Source: Dehalogenimonas etheniformans
GTDB taxonomy: Bacteria; Chloroflexota; Dehalococcoidia; Dehalococcoidales; Dehalococcoidaceae
Reading direction: 5' to 3'
NCBI RefSeq assembly: GCF_014672715.2
Contig: NZ_CP058566.2
Span: forward strand, 1,612,001-1,676,000
Length of the DNA: 64,000 nt
The notes below the pieces were generated by a model. It worked only from the letters and a program-made list of their open reading frames with translations, ran no database searches and was not told the origin of the DNA. The position numbers were made by a program, and so were the translations under genes. Of this stretch, positions 1,825 through 21,692 are shown piece by piece (the stretch's first letter is position 1; each line of letters starts with the position of its first letter).

Positions 1825-4284
1825 CTATGCTCGTAACGTGGCGCCGAGCTGGGTCATCAACGTTGATACGATCTCGGCCATGACCTTATCCACTTCTGCG
1901 TCCGTAAGCGTTGCAGCCGGCGACTGGAAAACCAGCCGGTAAGCCAGCGATTTCTTGCCGTCCGGAACCTGTTTGCCTGAATAGACGTCGAACAACCGGA
2001 CTTCCTTAAGCAAGGTGAAAGCGGAAAGGATATCTGACACCTGTTTGTGGGTTACGGACTCGTCCAAAACCAGGGCGATATCACGCATCACTGCTGGATA
2101 TTTGGGCAGCGTCTGGTAGGTACGGCCGGGCCTTACTTTGGGTAATAAAGCCGTCAGGTTGATTTCAAAGAGGAAAGCCCTATCTTCGATATCGAAATTC
2201 TTAAGTACCTTGGGATGGACTTCACCAAGCACCCCGAAATTGACGCCGGCTACAGAGAGTTGGGCCTGGTGACCGGGGCGCAAACCGGAGTCAGTCCCCG
2301 GTTCGAGTGTATAAGGCAAATTCATTCGCCCGAGAATTGTCTCCAACAGACCTTTCGCGTCATAGAAATCAAACGGGCGCTTGCATTGCTGCCATCCCAT
2401 CGGTTCTGCTTCGCCCGCAATGATGCCGCAGACCATTTCAGGTTCAGCCGGCAACGCCCCCGGCTTTGAATGATAAGCCCGGCCGATCTCGAAGAATCTG
2501 AGTCCGCCTTCTTCGAAGCGACGATTGGAGGACACAGCGTCCAGCAACGGGGCTCTCAGATTAGTGCGAAGGCATTCCTGTTCGGATGACATCGGGTTCA
2601 ACAATTTTACCGGCTCAGCGATAAGTTTTCCGTCCGCCGTAGCGCGCTGTAAAGCGTCGAAACTGGACAATGAAAGCGACATCATTTCCTGGAAGCCAAA
2701 ACCGGCAAGAGCGATGCGCCATAATTTCTTGAAGGCTAAAATCGGCGGGCCGACTCGTCTGGGAATATCTCCGGAAAGGGGACGGGTGGGCAAATTATCA
2801 TAGCCATAGATCCTGGCGACCTCTTCGATCATATCTTCGACGATGTTCAGATCGGTCCGCCACCAGGGGCAATAAACTCGGAGGAATTGAGTTTCGCCGC
2901 CGGCGCCATATTCAGCTTCATCGACGGTTTCCCAATAGAAATCGATCGCTAAAGCCCTGAAAGCCCTGAGTATCTTGTCGTATCCGAGGTCAGTACCGAG
3001 CACCAAATTGAATCGGGATGCCGGAACCTGGATGCCGATCCTGGCTTTCTTGCTCGGAAAGACATCGATCAGTCCGGTGGCTGCCTGGCCGCCACAGATC
3101 TGCAGAACAAGCTGTACAGCCCTTTTCAGAGCGTGGATCGCCATTTCCGGGTTCAGGTTCCTCTCGAAGCGCATTGAGGCTTCAGAACCCAGTTTCAAAC
3201 GATGAGAAGTATGGTGGATGCCCGTGGAATTGAAGCTGGCGGATTCGAGGATGATGTCCGTGGTCTCAGCCGATACTTCCGAATTAGCGCCGCCCATGAC
3301 TCCCGCGATGGCTATTGCTTTCCCGGCGTCGGCGATCATCAGAGTGTCGCTCGAAAGTATCCGCTCTTCGCCGTCCAATGTGACGAACTTTTCGCCCTCG
3401 GCGGCGCGCCGGACGTTGATTTTGCCTCCGGCAACCTTCGACATGTCGAAGGCGTGCATCGGCTGGCCATATTCCATCATCACATAATTGGTGATGTCCA
3501 CGATGTTGTTGATGGGGCGCATGCCCACCGCCGTCAGGCGCTTCTTAAGCCAGTCAGGCGATTCCGCAATTTTCACGCCTTTGACAATTGCCGCCGTGTA
3601 ACGGGCGCAAAGATCCGGCGCGTCGATGGCAACCGACAGCAGCGAGTTGACGTCCGGACCTTTTTCCTCATAGGCGGTATCCGGCAGTCTGATGGATTTG
3701 ATCTCCATCTGGGGAATGTCTTTAGACACGGTGACAGCAAAAATCTCGCGGGCGATGCCGGTTATGGACATGCAGTCGACCCGGTTGGGGGTGATATCCA
3801 GTTCGAGCACCTTGTCGCCAAGAACTTCAGCCAATTTGGTACCGACGATCGATTCGGGCGGAAGTTCAAGGATGCCCTCGTGGCGGTCGGAAATACCTAA
3901 CTCACGCTCGGAAAGGACCATCCCCCTGGATTCCACGCCACGGATGACGGCGGCTTTGAGTTCCATCGGCTGACCGGTATGACCGTCAGTGAGCTTGGTG
4001 CCGATACCGGCAAAGGCAACTTTCTGGCCGACAGCGACATTCGGCGCGCCGCAAACAACTTTAGGTTGCTCGGCACCGGTATTGACGGTGACTAGCCTGA
4101 GTCTGTCGGCATTGGGGTGGGGTTCCACAGCCAGAACCTCAGCAACGACGACACCTTCCCAGGCGGGAACGGTATAAGAAATCGCGGACACTTCATTGCC
4201 GGCAAGTGTCAGCTTTTCAGCGACCTCTTCAACCGGAATGTTGATATCAACGTAATCTTTAAGCCAGGAAATCGGGGCTTTCAT
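1825..4284 (-). CDS. pheT: Phenylalanine-tRNA ligase beta subunit
   Basis: The 819-residue beta chain of the alpha2-beta2 PheRS. Domains in order: N-terminal B1 (MKAPISWLKDYVDINIPVEEVAEKL), an EMAP/tRNA-binding OB fold with EVLAVEPHPNADRLRLVTV (about residues 45-150), the B3/B4 editing region, B5 with EDMIEEVARIYGYDNLPT, the catalytic-like core, and the C-terminal ferredoxin-like anticodon-binding domain (YPAVMRDIALVLDESV). Its ATG immediately follows the pheS stop codon, so the two subunits are translated from one message. Confidence 0.96.
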   Translation of the reverse strand: MKAPISWLKDYVDINIPVEEVAEKLTLAGNEVSAISYTVPAWEGVVVAEVLAVEPHPNADRLRLVTVNTGAEQPKVVCGAPNVAVGQKVAFAGIGTKLTDGHTGQPMELKAAVIRGVESRGMVLSERELGISDRHEGILELPPESIVGTKLAEVLGDKVLELDITPNRVDCMSITGIAREIFAVTVSKDIPQMEIKSIRLPDTAYEEKGPDVNSLLSVAIDAPDLCARYTAAIVKGVKIAESPDWLKKRLTAVGMRPINNIVDITNYVMMEYGQPMHAFDMSKVAGGKINVRRAAEGEKFVTLDGEERILSSDTLMIADAGKAIAIAGVMGGANSEVSAETTDIILESASFNSTGIHHTSHRLKLGSEASMRFERNLNPEMAIHALKRAVQLVLQICGGQAATGLIDVFPSKKARIGIQVPASRFNLVLGTDLGYDKILRAFRALAIDFYWETVDEAEYGAGGETQFLRVYCPWWRTDLNIVEDMIEEVARIYGYDNLPTRPLSGDIPRRVGPPILAFKKLWRIALAGFGFQEMMSLSLSSFDALQRATADGKLIAEPVKLLNPMSSEQECLRTNLRAPLLDAVSSNRRFEEGGLRFFEIGRAYHSKPGALPAEPEMVCGIIAGEAEPMGWQQCKRPFDFYDAKGLLETILGRMNLPYTLEPGTDSGLRPGHQAQLSVAGVNFGVLGEVHPKVLKNFDIEDRAFLFEINLTALLPKVRPGRTYQTLPKYPAVMRDIALVLDESVTHKQVSDILSAFTLLKEVRLFDVYSGKQVPDGKKSLAYRLVFQSPAATLTDAEVDKVMAEIVSTLMTQLGATLRA

Positions 4285-19408: not shown

Positions 19409-19470
19409 CTAGAAAAACCCCGATCCACCCCTCGAAGATTTCCGTCGTTTTGGGCTATGATATAGATGTC

Positions 19471-20916
19471 ATGCCTCAGAACAAGGACCACCTCTACTGC
19501 AAAGCGCTGCGCCAGGCGATAACCGCGGCCGGAACCGCCGCGTCGCTGAAAGACAAGCTAGAGGCGATCGTGCGCATCGCTTCACGCTCTTTCGACACCG
19601 GCGCCGCCATCGGGCTCCTCGATGCCACAGGAAGCCATCTTATCCAGACCGCCCATTGGCGCCTGCCCCCGACCTTCGTTCAGAAGGGCATCATCGACGT
19701 CGGCAAAAGCCTGAACGAGACGACTTCCAACGCACCTGTCTTTATTGAAAACGCGGCCACTGACAGCCGCGTGCAATATCCCGCGGCGGCGATCAAAGCG
19801 GGTATCGTTTCCATCTTCGGGGTCCCCATCTCACAGGACGGGCACCAGATAGGGGCTTTAAGGATCTATTTCAAGAAAACCCAATTGATCACTTTACAGG
19901 ATACCAGCTTCGTCAAAGCCCTGGCTCAACTGGTAGGGATCGTGCTTTCCCGACAGACGATCGAGGTCAAAGGCGAGATTCCAACCGCATCCGCAAAACC
20001 ATCGCGAATGGTCAAATTTAACCATGCCAGCGAAGAGGAATTTGCACGTATCCTCGATTTTTATAATGTACCATGGGTCTATGAACCGCGGTCTTTCCCT
20101 ATCGGGCATAAAACCAAAGGCACACCGGAACTGTTCACCCCGGACTTCTACCTGCCGAGCCTCGATCTTTATGTCGAGTTGACCACGATGAAACAGTCGC
20201 TCGTCACCCAGAAGAACCGCAAGCTGAAGGCACTCAAAGCCCAATATCCCGAGATAAAGATCACCTTACTCTACAAGAACGACTACGAAAAACTGCTGGC
20301 AAAATACGGCGCCGGTCCCCTCGCAGAGTCCCGGGCTCATGGCGTCAGCCGGATTCTTTATTCAGCGGCGGATATCAACCAGCGGGTAAAGGACATCGCC
20401 GGTAAAATCTCAGCGGACTACGCCGGCAGGCGCCCGGTGCTTCTCGGCGTGCAGCGCGGTTTCCTGTGCTTTATGGCCGATCTCATCCGCCAGATCACGG
20501 TGCCGATGGACCTCGATTTCATCGCTATATCGTACTATAGCGGCGCCAAGGAACCGGCCGTAAAAATCACCAAGGAGGCCGACTTGCCGCTTGCCGGGCG
20601 CCACATCCTTCTGGTCGAGGACATTGTCGACACCGGTATCACGCTGAACTACATCCTGAATTATCTGACTGAAAAGCAACCGGCAAGCTTGGCGGTCTGT
20701 ACCCTTCTCGACCGCAAAGCGCGTCGCCTGGTCAACATCAAACTCGACTATATCGGTTTCAACGTGCCGGATGAGTTTGTGATCGGCTACGGGCTCGACT
20801 ATCACGAGGAATATCGCAACCTGCCGTTTATCGCCGTCCCGCAGATAAAGGGCCCAGAAAAAGAGAAATCCGAAGCGCCAAACACGAAACCCGAAACAAA
20901 AACCAAAGAGACATAA
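19471..20916 (+). CDS. GAF / nuclease-like / hypoxanthine phosphoribosyltransferase fusion
   Basis: A protein of about 481 residues with three parts. Residues about 10-165 resemble a GAF sensor domain (SIFGVPISQDGHQIGALRIYF). Residues about 185-275 hold FTPDFYLPSLDLYVELTTMK and a KNRKLKALKAQYPEIKI tail, which look like a restriction-endonuclease-type fold. Residues about 295-450 are a purine phosphoribosyltransferase with the PRPP loop ILLVEDIVDTGITL and the C-terminal YIGFNVPDEFVIGYGLDYHEEYRNLP. The tail is rich in Lys, Glu and Thr. The start MPQNKD at 19471 is preferred because TATGAT lies 9 bases upstream, suggesting a leaderless message. It probably salvages hypoxanthine or guanine under ligand control. 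Confidence 0.75.
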   Translation: MPQNKDHLYCKALRQAITAAGTAASLKDKLEAIVRIASRSFDTGAAIGLLDATGSHLIQTAHWRLPPTFVQKGIIDVGKSLNETTSNAPVFIENAATDSRVQYPAAAIKAGIVSIFGVPISQDGHQIGALRIYFKKTQLITLQDTSFVKALAQLVGIVLSRQTIEVKGEIPTASAKPSRMVKFNHASEEEFARILDFYNVPWVYEPRSFPIGHKTKGTPELFTPDFYLPSLDLYVELTTMKQSLVTQKNRKLKALKAQYPEIKITLLYKNDYEKLLAKYGAGPLAESRAHGVSRILYSAADINQRVKDIAGKISADYAGRRPVLLGVQRGFLCFMADLIRQITVPMDLDFIAISYYSGAKEPAVKITKEADLPLAGRHILLVEDIVDTGITLNYILNYLTEKQPASLAVCTLLDRKARRLVNIKLDYIGFNVPDEFVIGYGLDYHEEYRNLPFIAVPQIKGPEKEKSEAPNTKPETKTKET

Positions 20917-20979
20917 TCAAAAAGAAGAAAGGTGAGGGACGAGGGCGGGATTTCGGATTTCCGTATTTCGAATTTGGTT

Positions 20980-21163
20980 AAAAATAGGGATCCCAGGTAG
21001 CCTCTGCCCCCGGGTCAGATTTCTTCAGAACTCCCTGATAGGACCTGCAAAGTTTTCAATAACGCTCCCAGGACGAACCTTGGGTTGATTAAGTTTCCCT
21101 TTCAGGTATCCCACCAAGTCAACGCTCTGGAGATCCTCCCATTGCATTGGTTACCTGGGACAT
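20980..21163 (-). ncRNA. Candidate structured RNA, copy A
   Basis: Read on the minus strand, the ~180-base element begins with GTCCCAGGTAACC and ends with GGCTACCTGGGATCCC followed by TATTTTT. The ends are complementary (CCCAGGTA at 20992-20999 against TACCTGGG at 21152-21159), giving a long closing stem before a U run. An internal hairpin CCCAAGGTTCGTCCTGGG (21067-21084) is kept in copy B. Size and closing stem recall 6S-like RNAs, but no specific identification is possible. A competing coding explanation is the 40-codon ORF at 21025-21147. Confidence 0.4.
21025..21147 (-). CDS. Possible 40-residue ORF inside copy A
   Basis: Encodes MQWEDLQSVDLVGYLKGKLN and a further 20 residues including PKVRPGSVIENF. 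Copy B keeps a related frame at 21549-21638 (MQWE...DLIGQLEGKL..PKVRPGRV) that stops 11 codons earlier. The shared residues could reflect coding constraint or just RNA conservation. There is no ribosome binding site; the ATG lies two codons after an in-frame stop in both copies. Confidence 0.3.
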   Translation of the reverse strand: MQWEDLQSVDLVGYLKGKLNQPKVRPGSVIENFAGPIREF

Positions 21164-21438
21164 TAATATGATGGCACGCGCGGTATAGTGAAGTCAAAGC
21201 GATGGATGGGATCATACGGCCATCAGTCATATTGGATCGCTCCAGGCTATCTACTCATTGCTCGCGATTATCCGGTTGATCGTGATTTCTCGCACTAAAG
21301 CAACGCGGGGGTCAAATGAAACTCGGAGGATGATCCCCATTGTTCAACGAGGGACGAGCCCCGATACAAAGCTCAAGGAATAATATCATAAACCTGAAAC
21401 GGCGAGGGTTGAAGTCGGGCGGGTCGGATGGGATATTC

Positions 21439-21692
21439 GGATTTCGAAATTCGTATTTCGAATTTGGTAATAAAAAGGGATCCCAGGTAGCCTTTGCCCC
21501 CGGGATGGAATCCTCCAGACTCTCTGAAAGGGATCTGCGAAGGTTTTCTTAAACTCTTCCAGGACGAACCTTGGGGTTGTTAAGTTTTCCTTCCAGTTGC
21601 CCGATCAGGTCATTGCCTGATGGCCATTCCCACTGCATTGGTTACCTGGGACATCTACTATGATTTCACACCGATATAACCGGCGTCAAAGT
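21439..21692. repeat. Duplicated ~250-bp locus, copy B
   Basis: Second copy of the locus at 20952-21201, offset by about 487 bases in the same orientation. Divergence is moderate, so the duplication is not recent. Confidence 0.8.
21470..21654 (-). ncRNA. Candidate structured RNA, copy B
   Basis: Same layout as copy A. CCCAGGTA (21482-21489) and TACCTGGG (21643-21650) close a ~170-base element followed on the minus strand by a U-rich tract. The hairpin CCAAGGTTCGTCCTGG is retained. A 5' hairpin ATCAGG / CCTGAT occupies the place where copy A has ATCTCC pairing with GGTGGGAT, a change that keeps pairing with different bases. Confidence 0.4.

What the first reader, a model, noticed from the sequence alone, without database searches (positions are those of the whole stretch)
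20952..21692. Duplicated ~250-bp locus that may encode a pair of structured small RNAs
Two copies lie 487 bases apart in the same orientation. Each has complementary ends (CCCAGGTA and TACCTGGG) about 150 bases apart. On the minus strand each is followed by a U-rich tract, and both keep an internal hairpin with a TTCGT loop. A 5' hairpin has different sequence but keeps pairing (ATCAGG/CCTGAT against ATCTCC/GGTGGGAT), as expected of a selected RNA fold. A tandem pair of ~180-nt RNAs with long closing stems recalls 6S-1/6S-2. A short ORF with PKVRPG in both copies is the competing explanation.
Basis: partly seen in the sequence, partly recalled or inferred. Interest (0 to 1): 0.75.

Follow-up and report, generated by a model that had tools for sequence, protein, structure and literature searches.

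The report
New rod-shaped RNA beside nuclease-like HPRT
The repeated stretch encodes two copies of a previously uncatalogued small RNA that folds into a long rod, is conserved across Dehalococcoidia and some other Chloroflexota, and nearly always sits next to an unusual second copy of a purine-salvage enzyme fused to a nuclease-like domain, which suggests an unknown RNA-protein partnership.

Summary
The repeat is real, and each copy is a small-RNA gene on the minus strand: RNA 1 at 21161->20990 and RNA 2 at 21652->21480, each followed by a U-rich tail. Each has a sigma-70-like promoter ending 6-7 nt before the first G and a 13-bp closing helix. The pair is orthologous in a sister species, where the RNAs are 93-95% identical, the spacer only 51% and the adjacent gene 81%. 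A third copy lies elsewhere in the genome. Homologues recur in Dehalococcoides, in many Dehalococcoidia and in a few other Chloroflexota classes. Nine of 13 closing-helix pairs show changes on both sides. No copy matches Rfam. No reading frame is open in all copies. It is not 6S RNA: RF00013 misses it, the shortest forms have no large central bubble, and four genomes carry this RNA (one of them only probably) plus a canonical 6S elsewhere. Almost every copy lies convergently just downstream of a GAF/PD-(D/E)XK-like/HPRT gene, a second HPRT besides the standalone one. Within Dehalococcoidales, gene and RNA occur together (13/13) or are both undetected (14/14). Best reading: a new rod-like sRNA family, probably the RNA partner of this protein. 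The RNA gene is well supported; the partnership is inferred.

The parts
21480..21652 (-). RNA copy 2, 173 nt from GUCCCAGG to the end of the closing helix, followed by CCCUUUUU (to about 21471)
   Evidence: ortholog in G002 94.5% identical against 51% in the spacer
20990..21161 (-). RNA copy 1, 172 nt, followed by CCCUAUUUUU (to about 20981)
   Evidence: ortholog in G002 92.8% identical
21640..21652 (-). 5' strand of the closing helix, copy 2 (GUCCCAGGUAACC)
   Evidence: 13-bp helix with changes on both sides in 9 of 13 pairs over 29 sequences
21480..21492 (-). 3' strand of the closing helix, copy 2 (GGCUACCUGGGAU), followed by CCC and a U-tract: terminator-like
21149..21161 (-). 5' strand of the closing helix, copy 1
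20990..21002 (-). 3' strand of the closing helix, copy 1, followed by CCC and a U-tract
21660..21689 (-). promoter-like site of RNA 2: TTGACG - 18 - AATCAT, 7 nt before the first G (coordinates counted by hand)
   Evidence: 24 of 29 family members score at least 9/12 against the sigma-70 consensus at this spacing; 1.9% of random positions do
21168..21197 (-). promoter-like site of RNA 1: TTGACT - 18 - CATCAT, 6 nt before the first G
19450..20916 (+). convergent neighbour: 488-aa protein with GAF domain (about 31-166), PD-(D/E)XK-like domain (about 184-300) and HPRT domain (about 303-463)

Best explanation
Window 20981-21652 holds two tandem genes, minus strand, of one family of rod-shaped noncoding RNAs (about 110-225 nt across the family, 172-173 nt here). 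SHOWN by sequence and comparison: conserved promoter-like sites, a start near the first G, a covarying 13-bp closing helix, a long internal-loop-rich rod, a terminator-like 3' end, conservation above that of the neighbouring gene, no shared reading frame, and a fixed convergent position downstream of a gene for a GAF + PD-(D/E)XK-like + HPRT protein that is a second HPRT in the cell. INFERRED: the RNA is a trans-acting structured RNA that the protein binds through its lysine-rich nuclease-like domain. Binding may be tuned by purine or PRPP status, much as the phosphoribosyltransferase PyrR binds RNA hairpins, with the RNA as the protein's regulator, scaffold or substrate. The direction of that regulation is not known.
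For: RNA gene: covariation (37 cells with changes on both sides against 15.9 in shuffles, 0 of 500 reaching it); fold z-score -7.8 for a 114-nt homologue; promoter 24/29 against 1.9% background; RNAs 93-95% identical against spacer 51% and gene 81%. Partner: nearly all homologues are convergent and directly downstream of the PD-HPRT gene. By my count of the loci, about 27 of 31 Dehalococcoidia PD-HPRT loci have it. A strict detector finds it in 24 of 34 such loci, none in 46 control loci and none in 28 loci of other classes, where it misses the variant forms. In Dehalococcoidales 13 of 13 genomes with the full fusion have the RNA (12 by model R1, G269 by helix scan) and none of 14 genomes without it has a match at E < 0.1. 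All 11 RNA-positive genomes tested carry two HPRTs, so the fused one is an extra.
Against: No transcript, binding or phenotype data. Most genomes of other classes with a PD(-HPRT) gene show no RNA next to it (about 20 of 28 loci), and neither do four Dehalococcoidia loci (L065, L071, L074, L080), so the protein can exist without an adjacent RNA. One copy in this genome (L003) is not beside the gene. Adjacency alone does not prove function: 6S next to ygfA and Ms1 next to a HAD hydrolase gene (PMC9130861) are precedents. The no-RNA result in genomes lacking the gene rests on model R1, which misses diverged members (it missed G269).
Confidence: 0.6

Rival explanations
1. A conserved trans-acting RNA with its own targets or protein (for example another RNA chaperone or RNA polymerase), whose place beside the HPRT gene is only a conserved neighbourhood.
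For: PD-HPRT genes without an adjacent RNA exist; the orphan copy L003; synteny without known function is documented for Ms1 (PMC9130861).
Against: Gene and RNA are present or undetected together within one genus and across the order, and the same convergent order recurs in different classes with otherwise different neighbours.
Confidence: 0.3
2. A 6S RNA or a lineage-specific 6S/Ms1 analogue that sequesters RNA polymerase.
For: Rod of about 180 nt with a closing stem, promoter and terminator; tandem copies as in 6S-1/6S-2; no RF00013 match in any Dehalococcoidia genome sampled.
Against: RF00013 does not match any copy up to E 5-10. G484, G386 and G618, and probably G456, carry this RNA plus a canonical 6S at another place. 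The 110-122-nt forms have no central bubble of 10 nt or more. The RNA is undetected in four congeners that also lack Rfam 6S.
Confidence: 0.07
3. A cis element: a two-way terminator or antisense control of the convergent HPRT mRNA.
For: Convergent, with the 3' end about 65-75 bp from the stop codon; the rod could terminate both transcripts.
Against: Each copy has its own promoter; copies exist with no PD-HPRT gene nearby (L003); two tandem copies; far longer and more conserved than a terminator needs.
Confidence: 0.05
4. A short protein (the PKVRPG frame).
For: A few identical residues in two copies.
Against: Stops or frame changes in every frame in most copies; lengths of homologues vary without regard to frame; base changes keep pairs.
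Confidence: 0.01
5. A small mobile repeat (MITE/REP-like) with terminal inverted repeats.
For: Complementary ends and three copies in the genome.
Against: Only 1-3 copies per genome, orthologous position across genera and families, own promoter, compensatory changes.
Confidence: 0.01

Closest known systems
6S RNA (RF00013), incl. 6S-1/6S-2 pairs
   Same: Rod of about 180 nt, 5' and 3' ends paired, own promoter, tandem copies in some species
   Different: No Rfam match; coexists with canonical 6S; no large central bubble in the short forms; strongest conservation is in the closing helix; tied to an HPRT gene
Ms1 RNA of Actinobacteria
   Same: Stable structured RNA known through synteny; lineage-restricted
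   Different: No sequence or synteny link (Ms1 sits by a HAD hydrolase gene; PMC9130861); RNA polymerase binding untested here
PyrR and its RNA hairpins
   Same: A phosphoribosyltransferase-fold protein as candidate RNA binder (precedent from general knowledge)
   Different: Here a separate convergent RNA gene, not an mRNA leader; the protein is a hypoxanthine, not a uracil, phosphoribosyltransferase and carries extra domains
T7 endonuclease I / PD-(D/E)XK nucleases (for the middle domain of the protein)
   Same: Weak sequence match (PF05367 E 9e-4; PDB 3cae E 0.008) and fold hits among PD-(D/E)XK enzymes
   Different: The lysine of the E-x-K motif aligns with threonine (ELTT), so catalysis is doubtful; fused to or in an operon with HPRT

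Membership tests
6S RNA | matches the RF00013 covariance model | tested here: not met
   no match to any copy or homologue at E up to 5-10, none in the genome or family at E <= 10
6S RNA | it is the genome's 6S (no other canonical 6S present) | tested here: not met
   G484, G386 and G618 (and probably G456) have a canonical 6S on another contig or far away; in Dehalococcoidia no canonical 6S was found at all
6S RNA | large central bubble of about 10 nt or more per side flanked by GC pairs | tested here: not met
   internal loops of at most about 8 nt in the consensus and 2-6 nt in most 110-122-nt homologues
6S RNA / Ms1 | binds RNA polymerase; 6S templates pRNA | not testable with these tools
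   needs RIP-seq or in vitro transcription
structured trans-encoded sRNA | own promoter, intrinsic terminator, covarying fold, no ORF | tested here: met
   transcription itself not tested
any of 4227 Rfam families | gathering score reached | tested here: not met
   within the searched loci only tRNAs and a T-box leader (L075) reach the cut-off, neither overlapping the RNA
HPRT (TIGR01203), for the neighbour protein | score above the curated cut-off and PRPP loop E-D-I-x-D-T-G | tested here: met
   179.1 bits against 150; VEDIVDTG in the alignment
T7 endonuclease I | catalytic D, E and K | tested here: not met
   D and E kept, K aligned with T
RNA-binding phosphoribosyltransferase (PyrR-like behaviour) | protein binds the RNA | not testable with these tools
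   inferred from gene association only

The most novel reading that the evidence does not exclude
A previously unknown two-part system of Chloroflexota: a GAF/PD-(D/E)XK-like/HPRT protein that senses purine or PRPP status and works through binding (or cutting) a dedicated rod-shaped RNA encoded convergently beside it.
Probability: 0.42. Interest if true: 0.86.

Novelty: categorically new. Interest (0 to 1): 0.74.

Why it matters
Within the libraries searched it is a new structured-RNA family, present in several Chloroflexota classes including Dehalococcoides, where it sits beside the same gene. A paralogous purine-salvage enzyme fused to a nuclease-like domain and paired with a dedicated RNA has no counterpart that I found. 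It gives a directly testable partner for both molecules, and a candidate small-RNA regulator in organohalide-respiring bacteria, where I found no described small RNA in the papers searched.

Tried and rejected
6S membership (RF00013 over genome, family and 400 phylum genomes). Coding frame. Mobile repeat (copy number, orthology). AlphaFold of the full protein: poor, pLDDT 50; the middle domain alone is usable at pLDDT 81. Phage and plasmid searches: only T7-type endonuclease relatives in phages and ordinary hpt genes, plus a fused hpt of Thermomicrobium roseum, on plasmid records, so no sign of a mobile defence system; PADLOC hits weak. Weak R1 hits L136 and L138 read as a terminator-like hairpin and a coding stretch. 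Loop-E-like motif (AGUA...GAAA) in the rod: 14 of 29 members against 6.4 expected, best of 200 shuffles 12; kept as a lead only. Literature searches found no description of this RNA (open-access text only). A search of relatives of the L033 genome could not be run.

Full report
WHAT IS THERE. The window is a stretch of a complete 2.07-Mb genome. Dehalogenimonas is my guess for the genus, because another genus of the same family looks like Dehalococcoides; neither name was given by a tool. Two diverged direct repeats lie 490-491 bp apart. Read on the minus strand, each starts GUCCCAGGUAACC and ends GGCUACCUGGGAU followed by CCC and U's: copy 2 at 21652->21480, copy 1 at 21161->20990. Both fold better than dinucleotide shuffles (z -2.6 and -3.7). 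A third copy, 70-76% identical, lies about 1.09 Mb away at G000:C1:544441-544618 (L003).

SELECTION ON THE RNAs. The pair is orthologous in sister genome G002. The RNAs are 92.8% and 94.5% identical, the spacer between them 51.1% and the last 316 bp of the neighbouring gene 81.3%. So both copies are kept, and they are more conserved than the protein gene beside them. The seven sequences of the genus give one continuous rod of 53 pairs, 11 of them with changes on both sides (shuffled mean 5.8, 0 of 500 shuffles reach it). No frame is open in all copies.

PROMOTER AND TERMINATOR. Across 29 non-redundant homologues, 24 have at least 9 of 12 sigma-70 consensus bases with a 15-19 nt spacer, ending shortly before the first G. 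The rate at random positions of the same loci is 1.9%. The closing helix runs into a U-rich tract in nearly every copy. The predicted transcript is therefore about 180 nt, closed 5' end to 3' end.

THE FAMILY. A covariance model of the seven (R1) finds full-length relatives in Dehalococcoides-like genomes (E about 1e-5), other Dehalococcoidales (to 5e-14) and another order of the class (0.0015). Every hit with E <= 0.01 apart from L003 lies beside the same gene. Looking beside that gene finds diverged members the model misses: 110-182-nt rods in other Dehalococcoidia, and forms of about 130-225 nt in four other families of other classes (L077-L081; L084, L085, L086; L088 probable). In the aligned closing helix (29 sequences), 95.5% of cells pair and 9 of 13 pairs show changes on both sides; 37 cells change on both sides against 15.9 in shuffles. 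Sliding the partners by 1-3 columns drops pairing to 29-53%. A 114-nt member folds at z -7.8. No member matches Rfam.

NOT 6S. RF00013 matches no copy and nothing in this family of bacteria. In 400 Chloroflexota genomes it matches 97, none of them in the window's own class. Among those 97 are G484, G386, G618 and G456, which also carry the new RNA (G456 probably) at a different place. The short forms have no large central bubble. Whether the RNA nevertheless acts on RNA polymerase cannot be tested here.

THE NEIGHBOUR. The convergent gene (19450-20916, +) encodes GAF, a ~120-aa middle domain with no accepted Pfam match, and a complete HPRT domain (TIGR01203 179 bits against a cut-off of 150; PRPP loop VEDIVDTG). 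The middle domain resembles T7 endonuclease I (E 9e-4, E 0.008). Its AlphaFold model (pLDDT 81) finds PD-(D/E)XK enzymes, best Bax1 at E 0.002. The motif is PDFYLP..(x)..ELTT, with the usual lysine replaced by threonine and a conserved K-x-x-K stretch after it. The domain occurs in 133 of 400 Chloroflexota genomes, fused to HPRT or encoded beside it in most loci inspected. All 11 RNA-positive genomes tested have a second, standalone HPRT, so the fused protein is an extra, not the salvage enzyme as such.

COUPLING. In Dehalococcoidales, 13 of 13 genomes with the full fusion have the RNA beside it (12 with R1, G269 by helix scan), and none of 14 genomes without the fusion has a match at E < 0.1. 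In the window's own genus, four genomes have both and four have neither. By my count over the class, about 27 of 31 PD-HPRT loci have the RNA (exceptions L065, L071, L074, L080). A strict detector (13-nt helix, promoter, U-tract) finds it in 24 of 34 such loci, in none of 46 control loci and in none of 28 loci of other classes, whose variant forms it does not recognise. Outside the class about 8 of 28 inspected PD(-HPRT) loci have an adjacent RNA by eye or relaxed scan. So the RNA predicts the gene well, and the gene predicts the RNA only within Dehalococcoidia.

MECHANISM. Shown: an RNA gene with these ends, fold and neighbour. Inferred: the RNA acts in trans as the partner of the PD-HPRT protein. 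An active-looking phosphoribosyltransferase joined to a nuclease-fold domain that has lost its usual lysine is a plausible RNA-binding, purine-sensing protein; PyrR is a precedent for a phosphoribosyltransferase that binds RNA (general knowledge). The orphan copy L003 and the tandem copies fit action in trans, not control in cis. I put the reality of the RNA gene at about 0.92, the partnership at about 0.45, an unrelated trans role at about 0.3, and an RNA-polymerase role at about 0.07. The confidence given for the best explanation covers the composite statement.

LIMITS. No transcript data. Pair counts count sequences, not independent events. R1 is insensitive to diverged members. Several loci come from draft genomes of uncultured bacteria. 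Organism names in the whole-genome set are not given. Literature was searched in open-access text only.

Noticed in passing
19450-20916 (+): GAF + PD-(D/E)XK-like + HPRT fusion, a second HPRT besides a standalone one in all 11 genomes tested; the middle domain is phylum-wide, resembles T7 endonuclease I and lacks the E-x-K lysine.
   Followed up: partly
L033 about 1970-2400 (minus strand): In a MAG labelled Desulfovibrio, a cytidylate-kinase-like/PD fusion gene is followed by HPRT, and a promoter plus ~390-nt structured-looking stretch with ends GCCAGGUUCC/GGGACCUGGC runs convergent to them; possibly a distant relative of the RNA outside Chloroflexota.
   Followed up: partly
L003 1496-1677 (-): Third RNA copy of this genome, with its own promoter, not beside the PD-HPRT gene; a HicA-like ORF (831-1085) and a small DNA-binding-like ORF lie nearby.
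   Followed up: no
   Followed up: partly
class Dehalococcoidia: No genome of the window's class among 400 phylum genomes matched Rfam 6S, whereas 97 genomes of other classes did: 6S is missing or very diverged there.
   Followed up: no
L015-L017, L023, L086: tRNA genes lie upstream of the RNA on the same strand; in L086 and L084 the RNA has no clear promoter of its own, so it may be co-transcribed (with tRNAs in L086).
   Followed up: no
RNA interiors, e.g. L068, L066, L077: Recurrent purine-rich 6x5 internal loops (RGUA opposite GAAA), sometimes next to short GNRA-capped stems, reminiscent of loop E / sarcin-ricin motifs; only moderately enriched against shuffles.
   Followed up: partly
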